Assembly (NCBI GenBank): GCA_018241725.1
Contig: JAFEDI010000101.1
Span: forward strand, 1 to 64,000
Origin: Pseudomonadota bacterium
GTDB lineage: Bacteria > Pseudomonadota > Gammaproteobacteria > Burkholderiales > Rhodocyclaceae
Length of the DNA: 64,000 bases
Direction of reading: 5' to 3'
Shown here in pieces: positions 9,400 to 30,423 of the stretch. Both the position numbers and the translations under genes were made by a program. Below the pieces are notes generated by a model, which was not told where the DNA came from, searched no databases, and saw nothing but the letters and a program-made list of their open reading frames with translations. The stretch's first letter is position 1; each line of letters opens with the position of its first letter.

Positions 9400-9699
9400 T
9401 CAGTTGATGACCCGGGCCGACGGCACCAGCGGTTCGGGCCCAGGCTGGCTGAGCAAGATCAGCGCCTCCCAGTTGTTCACCAACTGGGCAGCGCATCCCC
9501 TGAGAATGCCATCCAGGCGTTCGTCCGCGCTAACCACCCGCAGATGTGTGACGATCGACTGGGCCACCGCGGCACTGCGTTGAGCAGGGAAACTGCTCAT
9601 CAGTGTGAGCAATGCGGCCAGAGCAAGGTCGGGGGACGTCTCATAAGCGGGCAAGCCGTCTTCCTCACTCTCACCTTGGCAGTAGCACGGAATACTCAT
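9400..9699 (-). CDS. Hypothetical protein coupled to the S4 paralogue
   Basis: A 99-residue protein that I do not recognise. It starts MSIPCYCQGESEED, has no signal peptide, and contains a mildly hydrophobic helical stretch at about 24-35. Its ATG (9697-9699) overlaps the stop of the upstream S4-like gene as ATGA, so translation is probably coupled. The open frame extends 50 codons further upstream but that part only mirrors the S4 gene in another frame. Convergent with nifA, ending 12 bp from it. Confidence 0.65.
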   Translation of the reverse strand: MSIPCYCQGESEEDGLPAYETSPDLALAALLTLMSSFPAQRSAAVAQSIVTHLRVVSADERLDGILRGCAAQLVNNWEALILLSQPGPEPLVPSARVIN

Positions 9700-10307
9700 A
9701 TCCGCACCGCGTAGTATTCGACCACATGCTGGACTGCCACTGGGAAAGGCACCTCGCTGGCCTCCGGCAGACGGGTCACGACTGCCTGGAAAACCTTGCC
9801 GTCGCTGCTCAGCCACTCGGGGTGCGTCAGGGCCGGCTGCTCGACGCACTCCAGCACCATCGGCATACGCCGTGCCTTGTCGGTGAGGACGATGGCGTCA
9901 CCCGGCTTGATCCGGATCGACGGGATATTCACCGGCAGACCGTTGAGCAGCACATGCTTATGGCGCACCAGTTGGCGGGCCGCCACCAGCGTCGGCGCAA
10001 AGCCAGCGCGGAACACGAAGTTGTCCAGACGACGCTCCAGCAGTTCGAGCAGCTTGTTGCCGGTGGGTGCCTTGGCGCGCTTGGCCTCCCGGAATAGCCG
10101 CTGCAACTGGGCTTCGGTCAGCCCGTAGTTCATGCGCAGTTTCTGCTTCTCGATCAGCTTGAGACCGTAATCCGACTTGCGCCGCGGACGCGCACCATGC
10201 TGGCCGGGCGGGTAATCCCGCTCGCCGAGGGACTTGCGGGACAAGCCGGGCAACTCGCACCCGAGGGCGCGCATAACCTTCAAACGGGGACCGGTATAAC
10301 GAGACAT
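9696..10307 (-). CDS. Ribosomal protein S4 paralogue
   Basis: A 203-residue S4 family protein: N-terminal S4 region (MSRYTGPRLKV, PPGQHG, KSDYGLKLIEKQKLRMNYG) and the S4 RNA-binding domain (about 93-155, LDNFVFRAGFAPT). It is not in a ribosomal protein operon and its sequence departs from the usual betaproteobacterial S4, so a second copy is likely; the main rpsD would be elsewhere (inference). It has no N-terminal zinc-binding Cys set, with a single Cys near residue 17. It is divergent from the heme-uptake operon and shares the Fur-type site. The ATG at 10305-10307 is the family start. Confidence 0.85.
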   Translation of the reverse strand: MSRYTGPRLKVMRALGCELPGLSRKSLGERDYPPGQHGARPRRKSDYGLKLIEKQKLRMNYGLTEAQLQRLFREAKRAKAPTGNKLLELLERRLDNFVFRAGFAPTLVAARQLVRHKHVLLNGLPVNIPSIRIKPGDAIVLTDKARRMPMVLECVEQPALTHPEWLSSDGKVFQAVVTRLPEASEVPFPVAVQHVVEYYAVRI

Positions 10308-10355
10308 CGACAGATATTCCTTGGAAGAAAACGGGAGGGGTTCAAGCACCGAAGA

Positions 10356-10478: not shown

Positions 10479-10513
10479 GAATAAATGTAAACGATAATGA
10501 TTTGCATTTATTC
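10479..10513. promoter_or_regulatory. Fur-box cluster between the S4 paralogue and the heme operon
   Basis: GATAATGATTTGCATTTAT (10493-10511) matches the Fur consensus GATAATGATAATCATTATC at most positions. It is nested in a longer inverted repeat with arms GAATAAATG (10479-10487) and CATTTATTC (10505-10513), as expected for overlapping Fur dimers. It is placed to repress both divergent transcripts when iron is plentiful. Confidence 0.8.
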
Positions 10514-10640
10514 ATCAAGACGGGTAGATTTCCCACTCCGGCAGCCTGCCTGCCCCCTCGCCCCCACCCGCGTCAAGCCAGCCAGCCCGGGCCTTCCGCA
10601 CGCCAGCTAGCCAGATGTTCTCGATATCTGGAGATCCGCC

Positions 10641-12920
10641 GTGCCCGGTACCCGTCCCTCTTCCCGCTTCAGGAAGTCCCCCCTTGCCCTCTTCGTCGGC
10701 GCAGCGCTTGCCGGAAACGCCTGCCTTGCCGCCGCTGGCGACGAAAGCGCCACGCTCGGCACCGTGATCGTCTCGGCCAACCGCACCGAGACCACCGCCG
10801 ACAGCGTCCCCACCACCGTCACTGCGATCGGAGCGGAGGACATCGCCCGGCGCCTGCCCCACGACGAAGCCGCGCTGTTCGAAGACGAGCCGGACGTCAC
10901 CGTCGCCCGCGATCTGCGTCGCTTCGGCGCGAGCTCGGTCAACATCCGCGGCATCGAGGGCAACCGGGTCCTGCAACAGGTGGATGGCGTACGCCTGCCC
11001 GACTACTACAACGGCGGCGGCCCCTCCAACGCCACCACCTCCAGCTCCGACAGCCCCGAGTTCGATTTCCTCAAGCGCGTGGAAGTCCTGCGCGGCCCGG
11101 CCTCCAGCCTCTATGGTTCCGATGCCCTCGGCGGCGTGGTCAGCTACCTGACCCTCGATCCCCGCGACATCCTCGGCGAGCGCGACGTCGGCGTCCGCTA
11201 CAAAGTCACTTGGCGCGGCGCAGACAACAGCCTGCAGAACACCGCCTACTTCGCCGGCAGCAACGACACCATCGAAGCACTGCTGGCCCTCACCCGGCGC
11301 ACCGGCAGCGAACTGGACAACCGGGGCGAGACCGGCGGCAGCAGCGCCGGCCGAGAGTTGCCCAACCCCCAGGACAACCGCTCCCGCGGCACCCTCGCCC
11401 GGCTCGTCGTCAAGCCAGCCACCGGCCACCGCTTACGCTTCACCTACGAGGACCGCTACCAGCACACCGATAGCGAACTGCTGCGCCTGTCCACCTCCCT
11501 GCCCCGCGTCAGCGCCGCCGACGGCAGCGAGGATGCCCGCCGGGAGCGCTTCTCCGTCGACTGGGAATGGAAGCCCACGGCCGGCCTGGTGGACCGCCTG
11601 CTCCTGTCGGCCTACCACCAGAGCGCCGCCAACCAGACCTACACGCTGCAGAAACGCAGCGCCACCACCAGCGGCTGCTCCGGCACGAGCGGCGGCAGCA
11701 ACACCTGCCTGGTGGACATGAACTTCGACTTCCGCCAGCAAAGCACCGGCCTGGGCCTGCAACTGGAGAAGGGGCTGAATACCGGCACCCTCGACCACTT
11801 CATCGTCGTCGGCGCCGACTGGCGCCGCCACGAACTCGCCGAGATCCGCGACTACACGATCACCAACCAGACCACCGGCAGCGTCGGCAAGAGCCTGGCC
11901 GGCGACACCTATCCCCTGCGCGATTTCGCGCCGGGCGAATCGGACAGCCTGGGCCTCTTCGCGCAGGACGAGATCAGCATCGGCCGCCTCAGCCTGACCC
12001 CCGGCCTGCGCCTCGACAGCGTCAAGCTCCGCCCCGACGCCACCAGCAAGACCATCGGCGCACAGAGCTTTTCGGCCAGCAGCCAGGATCACTCCGCCGC
12101 CTCGCCCAAACTTGCCGCCGTGTGGCGCCACAGTCCGGCGACGTCGTTCTACGGGCAGGTCGTGCGCGGCTTCCGGGCACCCAACTACGAAGAGGTCAAC
12201 GGCCTGTTCTACAACGCTGCCCAGAACTACGCGAGCCTTCCCAACCCGAACCTGAAGCCCGAAACCAGCACCGGCATGGAAGTGGGCACCCGCTTCAAGC
12301 TGGCGGGCGGCGATGTGCAACTGGCCCTGTACAACAACAGGTACAGCAACTTCATCAGCAACGAACTGGTCTGTTCCACCCCGAGCGGGGCTAGCGCACC
12401 AGCCTGCCTGGGCAACTCGGTGCGCTCGGTGTACCAGTCGGTCAATCTGACCAGCGTCCGCATCCGCGGCGCGGAACTGCGTGGCCAGTGGGCCCTGCCC
12501 CACGGCTTCCGCACCGCCGGCGCCATCGCCTGGGCCGACGGGGACGTAACGTCCGCCGGCCAGCCGCTCAACGCCGTCGATCCCGCGCGCCTCTACCTCA
12601 ATCTCGGCTGGGACGGCCATGCCGCCAGCCGCCCCCTGGCCGTGGATGCGCGCCTGCGCGCCGCCCGTAAGAAGGACCAGGTGGACCGCAGCGAGGTCGA
12701 TTACTTCCGGACACCTGGCTACGCAGTGCTCGACCTGTCCGCCAGCCTGCAAGTCCATCGCAACGCCAGGCTCAACCTCGCCCTCAACAACCTCTTCGAC
12801 AAGAAATACTGGCTGTGGAGCGACATCCGCCAGGTCGCCCTCACCAGCACCGACGCCGGCCCGGCCTTCTTCACCCAGCCCGGCCGCAACCTGAGCGCCT
12901 CCCTCCAGGTGGATTTCTGA
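10641..12920 (+). CDS. TonB-dependent receptor of the heme/hemoglobin family (HmuR-like)
   Basis: Outer-membrane TonB-dependent receptor (759 residues) that I assign to heme import. A signal peptide covers about residues 1-32, a TonB-box-like TVIVSA lies near 41-46, the plug domain is about 50-170 and the rest is a beta-barrel ending in a C-terminal Phe (LQVDF). The FRAP and NPNL motifs of heme receptors are present (GFRAPNYEE, PNPNLKPE), but the His usually found between them is missing. The start is a GTG with a GGAG site 7 bases upstream. It follows a Fur-box cluster and leads an operon with a CobN-like gene 2 bp downstream. A different tetrapyrrole or metallophore remains possible. Confidence 0.85.
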   Translation: MPGTRPSSRFRKSPLALFVGAALAGNACLAAAGDESATLGTVIVSANRTETTADSVPTTVTAIGAEDIARRLPHDEAALFEDEPDVTVARDLRRFGASSVNIRGIEGNRVLQQVDGVRLPDYYNGGGPSNATTSSSDSPEFDFLKRVEVLRGPASSLYGSDALGGVVSYLTLDPRDILGERDVGVRYKVTWRGADNSLQNTAYFAGSNDTIEALLALTRRTGSELDNRGETGGSSAGRELPNPQDNRSRGTLARLVVKPATGHRLRFTYEDRYQHTDSELLRLSTSLPRVSAADGSEDARRERFSVDWEWKPTAGLVDRLLLSAYHQSAANQTYTLQKRSATTSGCSGTSGGSNTCLVDMNFDFRQQSTGLGLQLEKGLNTGTLDHFIVVGADWRRHELAEIRDYTITNQTTGSVGKSLAGDTYPLRDFAPGESDSLGLFAQDEISIGRLSLTPGLRLDSVKLRPDATSKTIGAQSFSASSQDHSAASPKLAAVWRHSPATSFYGQVVRGFRAPNYEEVNGLFYNAAQNYASLPNPNLKPETSTGMEVGTRFKLAGGDVQLALYNNRYSNFISNELVCSTPSGASAPACLGNSVRSVYQSVNLTSVRIRGAELRGQWALPHGFRTAGAIAWADGDVTSAGQPLNAVDPARLYLNLGWDGHAASRPLAVDARLRAARKKDQVDRSEVDYFRTPGYAVLDLSASLQVHRNARLNLALNNLFDKKYWLWSDIRQVALTSTDAGPAFFTQPGRNLSASLQVDF

Positions 12921-12922
12921 GC

Positions 12923-15900
12923 ATGCGCGCCGCCCACCGGCTGTTCATGCGGCTCGGCCGCCTGCTCGCCCCCGTGCTCTGCCTCATCCTGCTCAGCGGC
13001 AGCGGTGAAGTGTTCGCCGGGCGCATCCTCGTCATCAGCACCTCGCCGGTCCAGCCGGGCAAGTTCCTCAAGCTGGCCGAAACCGCCAAGGCGCACGGCC
13101 TGCAACTAGAGGCCCGCTTCGCCGAGAAGCTGCCGGCCGACAGCGGGCCGGCCCTGTTCCGCGGCTACGACCTGGTGCTCTTCGACACGCCCCGGGAACA
13201 TCTGCAGGCCTTCGTCGAGACCCGCCTGGCCGGAGCCCTCCCCGGCCTCACACAGCCCGTCCTGTGGCTGCACGAAGGCAATCCCCGCTGGCAAGGCCTG
13301 CCGGACGGGCTGGCCCGGCGCCTGCACACCTATTATGTAAATGGCGGCGCCCTCAACTTCGACGCCTTCCTGGCCACCCTCGCCGCGCATCTGGACGGCA
13401 AGCCGACCGGCGGCATCCGCGAGCCCATCGTCTTCCCCAAGAGCGGCATCTATCACCCGGACCATCCCGGCTTGGTCTTTGCCGAGCCCGTCGCCTACCT
13501 GCGCTGGAAGACCGGTAGCGCCACGCCCATCGCGCCGGTGATCGCCATCGCGCTGCACCAGCAGTACATCGCCGCCGAGCAGACTGCCTTCATCGACGAT
13601 CTGATCCGTCGCATCGAACGCAGCGGCGCCGTGCCCCTACCCTTCTACAGCCCGGTCATGGACCCGGACGCCGTGCGGCGCATGCTGCGCGTCGACGGGC
13701 GCACTGTTGCCAACGTGCTGATCAACACCCAGATCATGCTCAACCCGGATGGGCGGCGCACCGAATTCGCCGACCTGGGCATCCCGGTCGTGCAGGCCAT
13801 GCCCTACCGCAAGGGCGACGAAGCCGCCTGGGCCGCCGATCCGCAAGGCGTGGCGCTGATGGACGTGCCCTTCTACCTGGCCCAAGCCGAATACGCCGGC
13901 GTCACCGACATCCAGATCGCCGCCGCCACCCGCAAGTCCGACGACCAGATCGCCCCCATCGCCGGACAGGCCGCCGCCGTCGTCACCAAGGCCGTGCGGC
14001 TGGCCCACCTGCAGCGCACCGCCAATGCCGACAAGAACCTGGCGATCTTCTTCTGGAACTACCCGCCGGGCGAAAAAAACCTCTCCGCCTCCTTCATGAA
14101 CCTGCCGCGCAGCCTCGTCGGCACCCTCGCGGCCCTGCGGGCACACGGCTACAGCACCGAGACACCGGGCGAGACCGAGCTCACCCTGTCCCTGCAGCGC
14201 CTGCTCGCCCCCTACTACCAGCCCCCCGGCGACCAGCGGGAACTGGAATCCCTGCTGCGCGACGGCCTCGCCGAACGCCTGCCGCTGACGGCCTACCGGC
14301 ACTGGCTGGCCGGCCTGCCCGAGGGCGTTCAGAAACAGATGAAGGACCGCTGGGGCGAGCCCGAACGCTCGTCGATGCTCGTCCGTCAAGACGGCCAGAC
14401 CTGGTTCGTCATCCCCCGCCTGAAGCTGGGGCGCGTCAGCCTGCTGCCCCAGCCGCCCCGCGGCGAACGCGGGGAAAGCAAGGAGAAGGCGCTCTACCAC
14501 TCCTCCAGCGCCGCCCCGTCCCACTTCTACATGGCCGCCTATCTGTGGGCCCGCGAACAGGCCAAGAGCGATGCCTTCATCCACTACGGCACCCACGGCA
14601 GCCAGGAGTGGTTGCCCGGCAAGGAGCGAGGGCTAGCCGTCAGCGATTTTCCGATGCTCGCCGTCGGCGACGTGCCGGTGCTGTATCCCTACATCGTGGA
14701 CAACATCGGCGAAGCCACCCAGGCCAAGCGGCGCGGCCGCGCCACCATCATCAGCCACCAGACGCCGCCCTTCGCCCCCGCCGGCCTGCATGCCACGCTG
14801 ACCCGCATCCACGACCTGCTTCACAGCTGGCTGGCCCAGGACGACGGCGCCGTGAAGGACAAGCTGCGCGCCGAGTTCCTGGCCGGGGTGCGCAAGGAAC
14901 ACATCGAGCGCGACCTGGGCTGGTCCGACGCCCGCATCGAGGCGCAATTTCCGGCTTTCCTCAACGAAGTGCACGACCACCTCCATGAACTGGCCCGCAC
15001 GGCCCAACCCCTCGGCCTGCACACCTTCGGCCAGGGCGCCGGCGAGGACGCACGGCTGGCCACGGTGCTGATGATGGCCGGCAAGGACTTCTGGGACGGT
15101 GTCGCCGGCCCCGGCGAAGAGGCCGACGAAATGCTGGTCGGCGACTACACGCGCCTCAAGGAATCGACGCCTTACCGACGGCTGAAGGAGATCGTGGCCG
15201 GCCTGGCCAATCTCGCAGCCCTTTCCCCCAAGGCACGCGCCGCCGCAGAACGGACCCGCCAATGGTATGCCGCGCTGAATGCGGCCCCCGAGATGGCAGC
15301 CCTGCTCGACGGTCTGGAAGGCCGCTACATCCCGACCAGCTACGGCGGTGACCCGATCAAGAACCCCGACGCCCTGCCCACCGGACGCAACCTGTACGGC
15401 TTCGACCCCTCCCGGGTGCCGACGCAAGCGGCCTGGGAGGCTGGCCGCGACGCCTTCGAGCAACTCCTCGCCACCCACAAGGCCAAGAGCGGCAGGCTCC
15501 CGCAGAAGCTCACCTTCACGCTGTGGTCGGTGGAAACCATGCGCCACTTCGGCCTGCTCGAAGCCCAGGCCCTGTGGGCCATGGGAGTGGAACCGGTATG
15601 GGATGCCGGTGGACGGGTCGAGGACGTCAGGCTCGTTCCGCGGCAAACGCTCGGCCGCCCGCGGGTGGACGTGGTGCTGTCTGCCACCGGGCTCTACCGG
15701 GATCACTTCCCCAACGTGATGCGCCTGCTCGCCAAGGCAGCCCGGCTCGCCGCCGAGGCCAACGACGAGGCAGACAACCCGGTGGCCGCCAACACCCACC
15801 GGATCCAGGCCGAGCTGCGCGCCCGCGGCTGGGGCGAAGCCCAGGCCGTCAATGCCGCCCAGACCCGCATCTTCTCCTCCGAGTCCGGCCGCTACGGCAC

Positions 15901-16897
15901 CGGACTGGACGACGCCGCGCTGGCCACCGACACCTGGAAGGGCAAGGCCGAAGGCGACCGCAAGCTGGCCCGCCTGTACCTGTCGCGCATGCAGTTCGCC
16001 TACGGCCCGGACGAAACGAGCTGGGGCCAGCCCGGCGCCGGCGGCGAGAACCTCTACGCCACCCACCTGAAAGGCACCGAAGGCGCGGTGCTGTCGCGCA
16101 GCTCCAATCTCTACGGCATGCTCACCACCGACGATCCCTTCCAGTACCTGGGCGGCATCGCCCTCGCCGTCCGCCATCTGGATGGCAAGGCGCCGGAGCT
16201 CTACATCTCCAACCTGCGCGGCCAGGGCGGTGGCAAGGTGGAAGGCGCCGCCGGCTTCCTGGCCAAGGAGCTGGCCACCCGCAACTTCCACCCCGGCTAC
16301 ATCCAGGGCCTGATGAAGGAAGGTTACGCCGGCACCCTGCAGGTGCTCGACGGCATCAACAACTTTTCCGGCTGGCAGGCCGTGGCGCGGGAGATCGTGC
16401 GCGACGACCAGTGGCAGGAGTTCGTGGACGTCTATGTGCGCGACAAGCACCGCCTCGGCCTGCGCAAATGGTTCGAGCACCACAACCCTCACGCCCTCGC
16501 CCAAAGCATCGAGCGCATGCTGGAGGCCGCCCGCCAGGGCTACTGGCAGGCCGACAAGGCCACCGTGGAGGAACTCAAGGCCCGCTACCGGGAGCTGGCC
16601 GAACGGCACCAGGTCCGCAGCGACAACGCCGCCCTGCGCAGTTTCGTCGGCTTCGGTGTGACCCAGGCCCACCCCGCCGCCACCTCCGCGGACGGTGCCA
16701 CCCGTGCCGCGAAGGCGGCCGCTGTGCCCGACGCGCCAGAGGCACCGGCAACACCACCCTCCGTCCAGGGCCTGCGCCTCGACAAGCTCACCCCGCCGGC
16801 TCCGCAAGTCCCCGCCCGCGCCGCCGCCGGCCTGCTCCTCATCACCCTGGCCGCGCTGGGCGGCGCGCTGCGGGGCCGCCGCCTGCCCTTCCCCTGA
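12923..16897 (+). CDS. Exported CobN-like protein, candidate heme dechelatase (HmuS-like)
   Basis: A 1324-residue CobN/BchH family protein. The core motif GTHGSQEWLPGK is at about residues 555-566. Unlike the cytoplasmic cobaltochelatase subunit CobN, it has an N-terminal signal peptide (about 1-31, ending near GEVFA) and a C-terminal membrane helix (about 1297-1316) followed by basic residues, so the body should face the periplasm. No cobST genes are adjacent. The gene order receptor, CobN-like, ExbB-like, DUF2149 matches the hmu heme operons of Bacteroidota, where the CobN-like HmuS removes iron from heme (known). The same reaction here is an inference. The ATG at 12923 is 2 bp after the receptor stop. 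Confidence 0.8.
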   Translation: MRAAHRLFMRLGRLLAPVLCLILLSGSGEVFAGRILVISTSPVQPGKFLKLAETAKAHGLQLEARFAEKLPADSGPALFRGYDLVLFDTPREHLQAFVETRLAGALPGLTQPVLWLHEGNPRWQGLPDGLARRLHTYYVNGGALNFDAFLATLAAHLDGKPTGGIREPIVFPKSGIYHPDHPGLVFAEPVAYLRWKTGSATPIAPVIAIALHQQYIAAEQTAFIDDLIRRIERSGAVPLPFYSPVMDPDAVRRMLRVDGRTVANVLINTQIMLNPDGRRTEFADLGIPVVQAMPYRKGDEAAWAADPQGVALMDVPFYLAQAEYAGVTDIQIAAATRKSDDQIAPIAGQAAAVVTKAVRLAHLQRTANADKNLAIFFWNYPPGEKNLSASFMNLPRSLVGTLAALRAHGYSTETPGETELTLSLQRLLAPYYQPPGDQRELESLLRDGLAERLPLTAYRHWLAGLPEGVQKQMKDRWGEPERSSMLVRQDGQTWFVIPRLKLGRVSLLPQPPRGERGESKEKALYHSSSAAPSHFYMAAYLWAREQAKSDAFIHYGTHGSQEWLPGKERGLAVSDFPMLAVGDVPVLYPYIVDNIGEATQAKRRGRATIISHQTPPFAPAGLHATLTRIHDLLHSWLAQDDGAVKDKLRAEFLAGVRKEHIERDLGWSDARIEAQFPAFLNEVHDHLHELARTAQPLGLHTFGQGAGEDARLATVLMMAGKDFWDGVAGPGEEADEMLVGDYTRLKESTPYRRLKEIVAGLANLAALSPKARAAAERTRQWYAALNAAPEMAALLDGLEGRYIPTSYGGDPIKNPDALPTGRNLYGFDPSRVPTQAAWEAGRDAFEQLLATHKAKSGRLPQKLTFTLWSVETMRHFGLLEAQALWAMGVEPVWDAGGRVEDVRLVPRQTLGRPRVDVVLSATGLYRDHFPNVMRLLAKAARLAAEANDEADNPVAANTHRIQAELRARGWGEAQAVNAAQTRIFSSESGRYGTGLDDAALATDTWKGKAEGDRKLARLYLSRMQFAYGPDETSWGQPGAGGENLYATHLKGTEGAVLSRSSNLYGMLTTDDPFQYLGGIALAVRHLDGKAPELYISNLRGQGGGKVEGAAGFLAKELATRNFHPGYIQGLMKEGYAGTLQVLDGINNFSGWQAVAREIVRDDQWQEFVDVYVRDKHRLGLRKWFEHHNPHALAQSIERMLEAARQGYWQADKATVEELKARYRELAERHQVRSDNAALRSFVGFGVTQAHPAATSADGATRAAKAAAVPDAPEAPATPPSVQGLRLDKLTPPAPQVPARAAAGLLLITLAALGGALRGRRLPFP

Positions 16898-16923
16898 TCT
16901 CCAACAAGCCAACACTGCCGACC

Positions 16924-17403
16924 ATGAACCATCAACTCGAAAACACCATGTACGACGTGGCCCAGCTCTTCCTGCTGCCCACGCTGATCCTGATCGCCCT
17001 GCTATTCCTGTTCGCCTTCTGGACCCTCGGGGAATTCGCCCGGCTGGCCTGGCAGCGGCGAGGCGACGGCGGCCGGCCGCTGCTAAGTGCCTTTCGCGGC
17101 AACCCGACCCTCACCGAAGACGAACTCGATCTGCTCGCCCACACCCTACTCGAATCACCTCGGATCGCCAGCCGCGTCACGCCCATGCTGGGACTGGTCG
17201 CCACCATGATTCCCATGGGGCCAGCCCTCAAATCCCTGTCCGACGGTGATCTGGCCCAGGTCTCCCACAACCTGACGGTGGCCTTCTCGGCGGTCATCCT
17301 GGCCCTCATCGCAGCCTCCATCACCTTCTGGGTCACCAACGTGCGCCGCCGCTGGCTGGCCGAGGAGATCGTCCACATCGCGCGCCTGCGCCAGGGGGCC
17401 TGA
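16924..17403 (+). CDS. MotA/TolQ/ExbB-family proton channel protein
   Basis: A 159-residue inner-membrane protein with three predicted helices (about 12-34, 82-102 and 116-138), the last two with the Gly/Pro/Ala-rich pattern of the MotA/TolQ/ExbB family (MLGLVATMIPMGPAL). It is shorter than typical ExbB. It presumably energises the TonB receptor or the CobN-like protein together with the DUF2149 protein, which starts 3 bp downstream. The ATG at 16924 is chosen because the long open frame upstream only mirrors the CobN-like gene. A second Met at residue 9 is possible. Confidence 0.82.
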   Translation: MNHQLENTMYDVAQLFLLPTLILIALLFLFAFWTLGEFARLAWQRRGDGGRPLLSAFRGNPTLTEDELDLLAHTLLESPRIASRVTPMLGLVATMIPMGPALKSLSDGDLAQVSHNLTVAFSAVILALIAASITFWVTNVRRRWLAEEIVHIARLRQGA

Positions 17404-17406
17404 AGC

Positions 17407-17745
17407 ATGGGACTCAAACTCCTGCACGAACCGGAAACCGAAGATCCCATCCTGTCGGTGGTCAACCTCATCGACATATTCCTGGTGGTCATCGCCGCGC
17501 TGCTCATCACCATCGCCAAGAATCCGCTGATGAATCCCTTCAGCCGGCAGGACGTCACGGTGATCAGCGATCCCGGCAAGCCGACCATGGAAGTCGTCAT
17601 CAAGAAAGGCGAGAAGGTCGAGCGCTACAAGGCCAGCGGCGCCATCGGCAGCGGCGACGGTGAAAAGGCCGGGGTCGCCTACCGCATGAAGGACGGCGCC
17701 ATCGTCTATGTTCCGGAAGGCGGCGACGCCCCTGCGCAACGCTGA
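17407..17745 (+). CDS. DUF2149 family protein (HmuV/ExbD-like position)
   Basis: A 112-residue protein with one N-terminal membrane helix (about 17-37, SVVNLIDIFLVVIAALLITI) and a small extracytoplasmic domain, the layout of ExbD/TolR. Sequence and position match DUF2149, a family found next to CobN-like and ExbB-like genes. An Asp in the helix (NLIDIF) is where ExbD/TolR proteins carry their proton-linked Asp. It probably partners the preceding ExbB-like protein; the function of the family is not proven. Confidence 0.8.
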   Translation: MGLKLLHEPETEDPILSVVNLIDIFLVVIAALLITIAKNPLMNPFSRQDVTVISDPGKPTMEVVIKKGEKVERYKASGAIGSGDGEKAGVAYRMKDGAIVYVPEGGDAPAQR

Positions 17746-17844
17746 GCACGGATAGGCGCACCCAGCGCACCGCGAACTCCCGACCGCCGACTGGCGTCCA
17801 CAGGCAGCCCGCAGACTTCGACGGCACAACCGAGCCCCTGAACC

Positions 17845-18708
17845 ATGAAACTACGCCTGATCGCCCTCCTCGCCGGCATCGTCCTGTGTTGCGCCGCCCA
17901 GGCCAATGCCCCCGCCGGCGAGCGCATCGTCGATACCCGAACAGGGCAGACGCTCACCCAGCCCGAACTGCTCGCCCGTCTCCGCCAGGCGGATTTCCTG
18001 CTCCTCGGCGAGATCCACGACAGCCCACTGCACCACCGCCTGCGCGCCGAGCTGATCGCCGCCCTCGGCGCACAGAACGTGGCGGCCGAACACCTCGACA
18101 GGGGGCGGCGTCTCGGCGCCGGCCCCGTCGAACGCCTCCAGGCCGACCTGGAGGCCGCCGGCTTCGACACCAAGGCCTGGCAGTGGCCGGTGCACGAACC
18201 GCTGTTCGGCGGGCTGGCGCGGGCCGGCATCAACGTCATCGGCGCCAATCTTTCCCGCGAACAGGCGCGTAACGTGGTGCGTAATGGTATCGCTGCCCTG
18301 CCGTCCGACCTCGCCGCCGCGCTGGCGGCCGGTCCGCTGTCCGACGCCGCCACACGGGCGCTCGACGCCGATCTGCTGGACAGCCACTGCGGCCAGTTGC
18401 CGGCTAGCCGGGTGCCCGGCATGCGCCTCGCCCAGCGCGCCCGTGACGGTGCCATGGCCACCGAACTGACGCACCTCGCCGAGCGTCCGGCCGTCCTGGT
18501 CGCCGGCAACGGCCATGTGCGCGGCGACTATGGCGTTCCACAGTTGCTGTCCCGCCTCCGGCCCGACGCCCGCATCGTCAGCGTCGCCTTCGAGGAGACC
18601 GGCGACCGCCCGAACACGAGCGGCACGCCCCGCCCCTATTCCTACATCTGGTACACCGCCCCCACACCGAGAACCGATCCGTGCGCCGGCTTCGGCTCCA
18701 AGCCTTGA
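17845..18708 (+). CDS. ChaN-like heme-binding/iron-regulated protein
   Basis: A 287-residue ChaN family (haem-binding uptake, Tiki-like fold) protein. A signal peptide covers about residues 1-21 (LCCAAQANA); whether it is lipidated is unclear because the lipobox is not clean. The family motif LLGEIHDSPLHH is at about 52-63, and VLVAGNGHVRGDYG near the end is also typical. ChaN of Campylobacter binds heme and supports iron uptake (known). It lies 100 bp after the DUF2149 gene on the same strand, so it is probably part of the same heme operon. The start ATG at 17845 is the only good one. Confidence 0.82.
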   Translation: MKLRLIALLAGIVLCCAAQANAPAGERIVDTRTGQTLTQPELLARLRQADFLLLGEIHDSPLHHRLRAELIAALGAQNVAAEHLDRGRRLGAGPVERLQADLEAAGFDTKAWQWPVHEPLFGGLARAGINVIGANLSREQARNVVRNGIAALPSDLAAALAAGPLSDAATRALDADLLDSHCGQLPASRVPGMRLAQRARDGAMATELTHLAERPAVLVAGNGHVRGDYGVPQLLSRLRPDARIVSVAFEETGDRPNTSGTPRPYSYIWYTAPTPRTDPCAGFGSKP

Positions 18709-29753: not shown

Positions 29754-30032
29754 GCCGCGGCCGGGAGGGAAAAAGGGATCGGGTTGCACGGCAGTCAAGA
29801 CACCACGGGATATTGATCCGCTGGAGGGACCGGGGTTATTACAGATGCAAGTATTCCGCTGCCTGCGGGCCGGGTCAATCCCGGAATGGTGCGGGATTAC
29901 CCTCCAATCCCTGTGAAAAATTCCCAGTCCCGGAAATTCTATCCCCGAAACGGGCAAAACCCAGCATCGATCCCTGCCTGCCGCCAGGGAAGCTTGCACG
30001 CGTAAAGAACATGCAGTTAGACTCCGCGCCGT
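29754..30032. other. Intergenic stretch before the cobalamin riboswitch
   Basis: About 280 bp with no gene that I can support. It must contain the divergent promoters of the unknown minus-strand gene and of the riboswitch transcript. Several short inverted CCCGG/CCGGG matches occur near 29876-29960, but no clear terminator or operator. Confidence 0.45.
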
Positions 30033-30222
30033 TACGGGTGCCGACCCTGCGTCTGCAGGGAAGGTGAAACGGGAAGTCCGGTGACGTCGGGAGCATGCTC
30101 TCCCCGACCATTCCGGCGCAGCCCCCGCTGCTGTAAGCCTGACGAATCTGCTCCACGCCACTGGGTTTTCCCGGGAAGGCCAGCAGAAGAGAGTGAAGGC
30201 GAGCCAGAAGACCGGCCTGTGA
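30033..30222 (+). ncRNA. Cobalamin (B12) riboswitch
   Basis: The stretch contains the ordered elements of an AdoCbl/B12 riboswitch: GGTGAAACGGGAAGTCCGGT (30063-30082), a variable hairpin, the core GCAGCCCCCGCTGCTGTAAG (30118-30137), CCACTGGG with GGGAAGGC (30158-30180) and the B12 box GAGCCAGAAGACC (30201-30213). It lies about 200 bp upstream of cbiM and the cobalamin genes. When B12 is bound the family shuts down expression in cis, so the operon below is expected to be repressed by cobalamin. Limits are approximate. Confidence 0.93.
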
Positions 30223-30423
30223 CGATTGGGTGTGGTACCGGCCCCGGGGTGTGGGCAGATCCGACCGATGGGCTTGCCCAGACCCGTTGCCGTCCTGTTC
30301 CCTCCGCTGTTTCCCGGAACCGTCGCCGCCACAGGTCCGCACCCGCCTGGTCTGTATGCGTTTGTTCTGCACATCCCCGTTGCCCTGCCGCACTTCGTTC
30401 AATCGACACGAAGGAAAGCAAAC

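What the first reader, a model, noticed from the sequence alone, without database searches (positions are those of the whole stretch)
10479..18708. Fur-controlled hmu-type heme operon in a diazotrophic betaproteobacterium
Seen: Fur-box cluster, TonB receptor with FRAP/NPNL motifs, CobN-like gene, ExbB-like gene, DUF2149 gene and ChaN-like gene in one direction with gaps of 2, 26, 3 and 100 bp. Known: the same order (HmuR, HmuS, ExbB-like, DUF2149) makes the hmu operons of Bacteroidota, in which CobN-like HmuS removes iron from heme. Inference: this bacterium imports heme and strips its iron without a heme oxygenase, possibly to feed nitrogenase and cbb3 oxidase.
Basis: partly seen in the sequence, partly recalled or inferred. 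Interest (0 to 1): 0.8.

Follow-up and report, generated by a model that had tools for sequence, protein, structure and literature searches.

The report
CobN-like heme-iron uptake operon
A bacterium with nitrogen-fixation genes carries a gene set, probably switched on by iron starvation, that looks built to take up heme-like iron rings and pull the metal out just inside the cell; it resembles a system known from gut bacteria but has a different active site.

Summary
In detail: receptor, CobN-like, ExbB-like, DUF2149 and ChaN genes in one direction (gaps 2, 26, 3, 99 bp) behind the best Fur-like site of the 64 kb. The receptor passes both NCBIfam heme-receptor cut-offs. The genome shows no CobT, no second CobN-like gene, no PF01126 or HugZ heme oxygenase, no HemS; the window carries early-cobalt B12 genes, so a B12 role is unlikely. 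A heme-iron operon is the likeliest reading, but "hmu-type" is too strong: of HmuS's defining features only the superfamily histidine and membrane ends are kept; His1209/Glu1212 are Asp/Gln as in true CobN, the Met79/His254 site, Met-rich insert, hmuY and hmuT are absent, and the receptor lacks the His expected between FRAP and NPNL. Distant relatives carry the CobN-like/ExbB/DUF2149 core behind cobalamin riboswitches or under Zur (P. aeruginosa, published). Of 28 DUF2149 places 27 have a CobN-like gene and 22 a receptor nearby. ExbB-DUF2149 may be a proton-driven motor for the chelatase (odds 0.3). New variant of a known kind; no function is shown.

The parts
10487..10511 (.). Fur-like operator, two overlapping sites (13/19 at 10487, 14/19 at 10493), between the divergent S4 paralog and the receptor gene
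   Evidence: the same or nearly the same sequence upstream of the operon in L028, L029, L032, L064, L084
10641..12920 (+). TonB-dependent receptor of the heme/hemoglobin family
   Evidence: TIGR01786 433 bits (cut-off 323.75), TIGR01785 407 bits (cut-off 316.85); best solved relative PhuR 8the, E 1.6e-92
12923..16897 (+). CobN-like class I chelatase-family protein, 1324 aa, with a signal-peptide-like N-terminus and a C-terminal hydrophobic segment; H558 = HmuS H538; D1071/Q1074 = HmuS H1209/E1212
16673..16897 (+). C-terminal tail of the CobN-like protein (approximate bounds): Pro-rich linker, GLRLDK motif, hydrophobic segment, GALRGRR end
16924..17403 (+). ExbB-like proton-channel subunit, 159 aa
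   Evidence: PF01618; an ExbB-like hit lies within 1 kb of DUF2149 in 28 of 28 DUF2149 places
17407..17745 (+). DUF2149 protein, 112 aa, ExbD-like in layout: one helix (14-38) with invariant D23, then strands
   Evidence: PF09919; D23 invariant in 40 rows; helix from a low-confidence model (mean pLDDT 59.4); side by side with an ExbD
17845..18708 (+). ChaN-like protein (Cofac_haem_bdg)
   Evidence: PF04187; a ChaN hit near the operon in 22 of 61 loci with more than 5 kb downstream

Best explanation
An iron-starvation operon for heme or a heme-like iron chelate. Seen in the sequence: a Fur-like operator, a heme-family outer-membrane receptor, a class I chelatase-family protein with export signal and C-terminal anchor, an ExbB/ExbD-like pair and ChaN. 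Inferred: under low iron Fur releases the operon; the receptor brings heme (or a close porphyrin) into the periplasm; the CobN-like protein binds it in its central cleft and takes out the iron, using H558 and probably D1071 in place of HmuS's two histidines; the iron enters through an inner-membrane Fe(II) importer encoded elsewhere; ChaN handles heme; ExbB-DUF2149 supplies proton-motive energy.
For: Both heme-receptor models passed; PhuR the best solved relative. Fur-like site. Chelatase fold on a model of mean pLDDT 82.7 (CobN 7c6o TM 0.79, HmuS 9d26 TM 0.76); best sequence match in the PDB is HmuS (405 bits, CobN 377). The catalytic His is kept: H at the H558 column in 85 of 87 rows outside L021-L026, gap in 2, and in 6 of 6 of L021-L026. 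Hydrophobic segments at both ends in 26 of 26 chosen ExbB/DUF2149-linked proteins and in none of 5 control CobN from cob clusters. B12 use unlikely: CbiX, CbiD, CobM/CbiF, CobI/CbiL, CbiM and a cobalamin riboswitch in the window, no CobT (46), one CobN-like gene. No PF01126, HugZ or HemS (45, 118, 49). Top FeoB_N hit in a 730-codon frame. The tree puts the window among heme-receptor rows. HmuS, a homologue, is reported to de-chelate heme (PMC12583661, abstract and passages).
Against: HmuS-defining residues are absent and the second site is CobN-type. By fold the model is slightly nearer CobN than HmuS. No His between FRAP and NPNL. Distant relatives of the core stand behind cobalamin riboswitches, so the chemistry may differ. 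The NCBIfam model passed is named cobaltochelatase CobN (NF004644, 1463 bits, cut-off 1248). IsdG-type oxygenases were not searched; two radical-SAM frames match TIGR04107 at 174 and 171 bits, below its cut-off of 400. 31 of 51 heme-type relatives and 12 of 16 CirA-type ones had no Fur-like site of 13/19 in the stretch scanned. No experiment.
Confidence: 0.5

Rival explanations
1. A heme or porphyrin importer in which the CobN-like protein binds or hands on the ring but does not remove the metal; iron is released elsewhere.
For: HmuS-type second His and Glu are Asp/Gln; ChaN is present; a His (H93) sits in the head-domain loop that aligns with HmuS Met79 in 47 of 54 heme-receptor rows and 1 of 17 CirA-receptor rows.
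Against: The superfamily's catalytic His is kept; no HemS, PF01126 or HugZ protein was found to take over. The H93 association is close to one deep split: of 4 independent pairs 1 goes with the receptor and 3 do not differ.
Confidence: 0.2
2. A cobaltochelatase for B12 synthesis, as the database name says.
For: NF004644 'cobaltochelatase subunit CobN' above cut-off; CobN-type Asp/Gln motif.
Against: Export signal and C-terminal anchor; no CobT (CobS not searched); early-cobalt pathway genes with CbiX in the same window; heme-type receptor and Fur-like site; the ATPase/VWA neighbours of four control CobN genes replaced by ExbB/DUF2149.
Confidence: 0.04
3. A zinc- or cobalt-chelate system like P. 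aeruginosa PA1922-PA1925, only placed under Fur here.
For: Same four-gene order, published as Zur-controlled (PMC4542158, PMC9431628; passages). Three of ten related upstream stretches have Zur-like matches of 11-12 of 14 (L157, L158, L159), all with CirA-like receptors; not tested against shuffles.
Against: The window's receptor is heme-type, PA1922 is called CirA in PMC9431628; the window's best Zur score (12) lies inside the Fur site. L017, CirA-type, has a Fur-like site (13) and a Zur score of only 9.
Confidence: 0.12

Closest known systems
hmuYRSTUV operon of Bacteroidota (HmuS heme de-chelatase)
   Same: Receptor, CobN-like protein with both ends hydrophobic, ExbB-like, DUF2149; iron control; superfamily His
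   Different: No hmuY, no hmuT, ChaN added; HmuS H1209/E1212, M79, H254 and Met-rich insert absent; different phylum. PMC10100974 (passages) says the intact operon is confined to Bacteroidetes
P. aeruginosa PA1922-PA1925
   Same: Receptor, CobN-like, ExbB/ExbD-like, DUF2149 in this order (PMC9431628, PMC4542158; passages)
   Different: Zur-controlled, receptor called CirA; role 'remains to be determined' (PMC4542158). Its sequence was not compared here
Aerobic cobaltochelatase subunit CobN
   Same: Fold and active-site motif type
   Different: No hydrophobic ends in 5 of 5 controls, ATPase/VWA gene beside 4 of 5, all in cob clusters

Membership tests
HmuS heme de-chelatase | Superfamily motif with catalytic His538 | tested here: met
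   HYGTHG, H558
HmuS heme de-chelatase | LSLDHxxEFMGG with His1209 and Glu1212 | tested here: not met
   LTTDDPFQYLGG; at the 1209 column Asp in 84, His in 1 (L018) and gap in 2 of 87 rows outside L021-L026, Asp in 6 of 6 of those. The motif is in L115, L116, L118, and a His/Glu version in L107 and L114
HmuS heme de-chelatase | Met79 and His254 heme site in head and neck | tested here: not met
   Window residues aligned with MG and HGR are PR and IM; alignment of these domains is weak
HmuS heme de-chelatase | Methionine-rich insertion | tested here: not met
   At most 5 Met per 120 aa against 30 in L116; but L115 (10) and L118 (9), which keep HGR and the His1209 motif, lack it too
HmuS heme de-chelatase | Membrane segments at both ends | tested here: met
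   Hydropathy 1.95 at the N-terminus, 1.76 at the C-terminus; a hydropathy scan, not a topology predictor
HmuS heme de-chelatase | Complete hmuYRSTUV operon | tested here: not met
   No gene between receptor and CobN-like or between CobN-like and ExbB, no HmuY gene next to them
HmuS heme de-chelatase | Heme to PPIX conversion | not testable with these tools
   needs purified protein
TonB heme/hemoglobin receptor | TIGR01785 and TIGR01786 over curated cut-off | tested here: met
   407 and 433 bits
TonB heme/hemoglobin receptor | His between FRAP and NPNL (recalled, from no call) | tested here: not met
   1 of 54 aligned receptors has one (L102), the window has none; Tyr at the Y530 column in 53 of 54
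CobN of the CobNST cobaltochelatase | CobT partner, no export signal, late-cobalt pathway | tested here: not met
   no PF06213; hydrophobic ends (110); early-cobalt genes (89, 91). CobS was not searched
ExbD/TolR-type subunit (for DUF2149) | One N-terminal transmembrane helix with an acidic residue | tested here: met
   D23 invariant in 40 rows, Glu in Runella; helix 14-38 in a poor model
ExbD/TolR-type subunit (for DUF2149) | Match to the ExbD profile PF02472 | tested here: not met
   no PF02472 match at E <= 0.01

The most novel reading that the evidence does not exclude
ExbB-DUF2149 is a proton-driven motor that acts on a membrane-tethered periplasmic class I chelatase, in place of the ATPase that drives CobN and ChlH; this three-gene core has been fitted to different metals (iron-heme under Fur, cobalt behind cobalamin riboswitches, zinc under Zur, perhaps nickel among hyp genes), and the C-terminal Pro-rich linker, GxxLxK motif and hydrophobic segment is the docking module.
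Probability: 0.3. Interest if true: 0.85.

Novelty: new variant of a known kind. Interest (0 to 1): 0.6.

Why it matters
If true it extends heme de-chelation, described in the papers I saw for Bacteroidota, to a lineage of betaproteobacteria with a different active site, and gives a natural test of which residues are needed. It also suggests what ExbB-DUF2149 does: PMC12583661 (section 23) says most clusters of the superfamily cannot be reliably annotated, and PMC13227078 (passages) says the electron source of HmuS in vivo is unresolved and that HmuT, HmuU and HmuV may affect its activity. PA1922-PA1925, a zinc-starvation operon of undetermined role, would fall into the same frame.

Tried and rejected
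B12 cobaltochelatase: rejected (rival 2). Cobalamin riboswitch at the operon: none; the only one found in the window is at 30019-30234. Fold search for DUF2149: not done, the model was too poor. Receptor type as driver of the H93 loop: 1 of 4 independent pairs agrees, so not used as evidence. Structural re-ranking with VIA: library absent. HmuT as a DUF2162 relative: for 3 HmuT proteins Pfam gave one match, to another family, at E 0.07. Archaeal loci, a clean test because archaea lack TonB receptors (recalled), were not reached: the single genome-contig scan went to near relatives. Only the control hits of Methanosarcina acetivorans to PF02514 and PF09919 and Table 3 of PMC10100974 (HmuV in Methanomicrobia; passage) speak to it, and adjacency there was not examined.

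Caveats of counts. The 80 loci are the best 80 of 315 relatives, so kin of the window dominate. Fur statistics used 51 heme-type and 16 CirA-type loci; the other 13 of 80 were dropped for lack of a receptor or of upstream sequence, and starts are those of the longest frames. One search scored one orientation of a nearly palindromic consensus; one search scored both. The 26 proteins were chosen for diversity, not drawn. The 28 DUF2149 places come from two samples; stretches differ in length and L016 is cut by a contig end; L015 and L016 hold CobN-like fragments. The tree is FastTree with long branches flagged. In one search hits to CobN-like fragments were set aside by eye before naming the best other hit.
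Full report
Observation. Gaps are 2, 26, 3 and 99 bp. The CobN-like gene is the only PF02514 match found in the genome. The nearest relatives in named genomes are Zoogloea (92% for Zoogloea sp. LCSB751 and for MAG SZAS-77), so the host is probably Zoogloea or near it (inference). NifA and NifB are in the window.

Control. The stretch between the divergent S4 paralog and the receptor holds two overlapping Fur-like sites, 14/19 and 13/19, the best in 64 kb; 11 of 2000 dinucleotide shuffles do as well. Upstream of relatives with heme-type receptors 20 of 51 have a site of 13/19 or better, against 32 of 615 control regions (Fisher p 2e-11); for CirA-type receptors 4 of 16. Related loci are not independent, so the p-value is too small.

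Receptor. It passes TIGR01786 and TIGR01785 and PhuR is the best solved relative. But the His expected between FRAP and NPNL (recalled from work on other heme receptors) is missing in 53 of 54 heme-type receptors, where Tyr is kept at the Y530 column in 53. Heme is the likeliest ligand, not a proven one.

CobN-like protein. By sequence HmuS is the best solved match (405 bits), CobN next (377); by fold CobN comes first (TM 0.79) and HmuS second (0.76), on a model of mean pLDDT 82.7. The HmuS paper (PMC12583661; abstract, introduction, section 23 and passages) defines HmuS by the Met-rich insert, Met79, His254 and a series of body motifs including LSLDHxxEFMGG. The first four of these are not in the window protein; the superfamily's His538 is (H558). 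In place of His1209/Glu1212 stand D1071/Q1074, as in the true CobN of Azotobacter, L122. The column is Asp in 84 of 87 rows outside L021-L026, with 1 His and 2 gaps. So HmuS membership fails; working like HmuS is not excluded. A His-plus-acid pair is what ferrochelatase uses (recalled), so D1071 is compatible with iron-porphyrin chemistry (inference).

Not B12. The window holds CbiX, CbiD, CobM/CbiF, CobI/CbiL, CbiM and a cobalamin riboswitch, the early-cobalt route, and the genome has no CobT match. No PF01126 or HugZ match and no HemS were found. Two frames match the radical-SAM model TIGR04107 far below its cut-off, as 14 of 14 control genomes do at the search's threshold (1 over the cut-off). 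The top FeoB_N hit lies in a 730-codon frame, so an Fe(II) importer is likely.

Family and neighbourhood. In 80 loci (best 80 of 315) ExbB-like and DUF2149 genes lie within 8 kb downstream in 60 of 61 with more than 5 kb of sequence there, a receptor upstream in 63 of 68 with more than 4 kb there, a ChaN hit near in 22 of 61. On a FastTree tree the window sits among heme-receptor rows, and heme and CirA-like receptors change 4 times. Scans for DUF2149 alone gave 12 of 185 genomes of the class and 17 of 398 of the phylum, 28 distinct places in all. An ExbB-like hit lies within 1 kb in 28 of 28, a CobN-like gene or fragment in the fetched stretch in 27, a receptor in 22. The place without CobN, L020, is in the window's own genome.

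Other metals. Plasmid relatives: Trichlorobacter has receptor-DUF2162-ExbB-DUF2149-CobN-ExbB-ExbD-TonB behind two cobalamin riboswitches. A Comamonadaceae plasmid has ExbB-DUF2149-CobN without an adjacent receptor, behind one riboswitch of 40.2 bits. Runella has the core among hyp genes with a membrane protein that matches NicO only below its cut-off. Azospirillum has CobN-ExbB-DUF2149 about 7 kb from nikR, with a riboswitch and ABC and receptor genes between, so its metal is unclear. P. aeruginosa has PA1922-PA1925 under Zur (PMC4542158, PMC8456098, PMC9431628, PMC11761036; passages). PMC10100974 (passages) reports an hmu-like operon with a cobalamin riboswitch in B. fragilis and HmuV in Proteobacteria and Methanomicrobia. 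In 16 further loci scanned with Rfam, counting these, no other cobalamin riboswitch was found.

Motor hypothesis. For: (i) five control CobN proteins, four of them beside an ATPase or VWA gene, lack hydrophobic ends, while 26 of 26 chosen ExbB/DUF2149-linked ones have both (lowest linked C-terminal score 1.26, highest control 1.04). (ii) The CobN-like tail carries a Pro-rich GxxLxK-hydrophobic module in many members, and the best match of a tail profile outside CobN-like proteins (E 0.007) is the end of a Sel1-repeat protein encoded just before the second ExbB-DUF2149 pair of the window's genome. (iii) Trichlorobacter and L019 carry TonB-, ExbB- and ExbD-like genes besides ExbB-DUF2149 (in L019 the ExbD is named by eye), and the window's genome has 6 ExbD matches, so the pair is not needed for TonB. 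(iv) L120 has the trio without an adjacent receptor. (v) DUF2149 keeps an acidic residue where ExbD has its Asp. Against: purified HmuS without its membrane ends converts heme with NADH and no partner (PMC12583661 passages); PMC10100974 and PMC12583661 give HmuU/HmuV to TonB; a receptor is near in 22 of 28 places; DUF2149 does not match PF02472.

Literature. Searches for CobN + TonB-dependent receptor + DUF2149 (2 papers), DUF2149 + CobN (53: 2), cobN + methanogen + ExbB (54: 4, listing only), cobN + Fur + TonB-dependent + heme + Betaproteobacteria (90: 0), HmuS + Proteobacteria + heme + chelatase (92: 3) and cobaltochelatase + ExbB + TonB + Fur regulon (93: 1, listing only) showed me no description of a Fur-type heme-receptor operon with a CobN-like protein in Betaproteobacteria. 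Most subscription journals are outside that library.

Noticed in passing
window 9696-10349 (-); L027, L029, L031, L032, L035, L054, L069, L074, L082, L084, L096: A second ribosomal protein S4 gene (the genome has two matches) lies divergent from the operon across the Fur-like site. An S4 paralog lies near the operon in 11 of 80 loci (L044 too by eye), in some of them co-directional downstream of DUF2149, often with one gene between, or between CobN and ExbB (L035). Why is unexplained.
   Followed up: partly
L020:9998-11866 (-) (G000:C27): The window's genome has a second ExbB-DUF2149 pair, preceded not by CobN but by a Sel1-repeat protein whose C-terminal tail resembles the CobN-like tail.
   Followed up: partly
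L066, L074, L082, L083, L085, L086, L100: A second protein of about 700 aa sits between the CobN-like gene and ExbB or the next gene; in L066 Pfam calls it a TonB receptor, in the others judged by eye.
   Followed up: partly
L068:7545-19434 and L082:9022-20286: Two CobN-like systems side by side: convergent in L068, tandem CobN-like paralogs in L082.
   Followed up: no
CobN-like residue H93 (window 13199-13201): A PRxH loop aligned with HmuS Met79 goes with heme-type receptors (H in 47 of 54) and rarely with CirA-type (1 of 17), but it follows clades rather than receptor changes.
   Followed up: yes
window 9400-9849 (-); L035:13019-13291, L069:12487-12765, L074:16800-17078: A small protein accompanies the S4 paralog; the L035 copy has no Pfam match; likeness of the window's frame to it is judged by eye.
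   Followed up: no
L102:8914-12885: The CobN-like gene is split into two frames; left as found.
   Followed up: no
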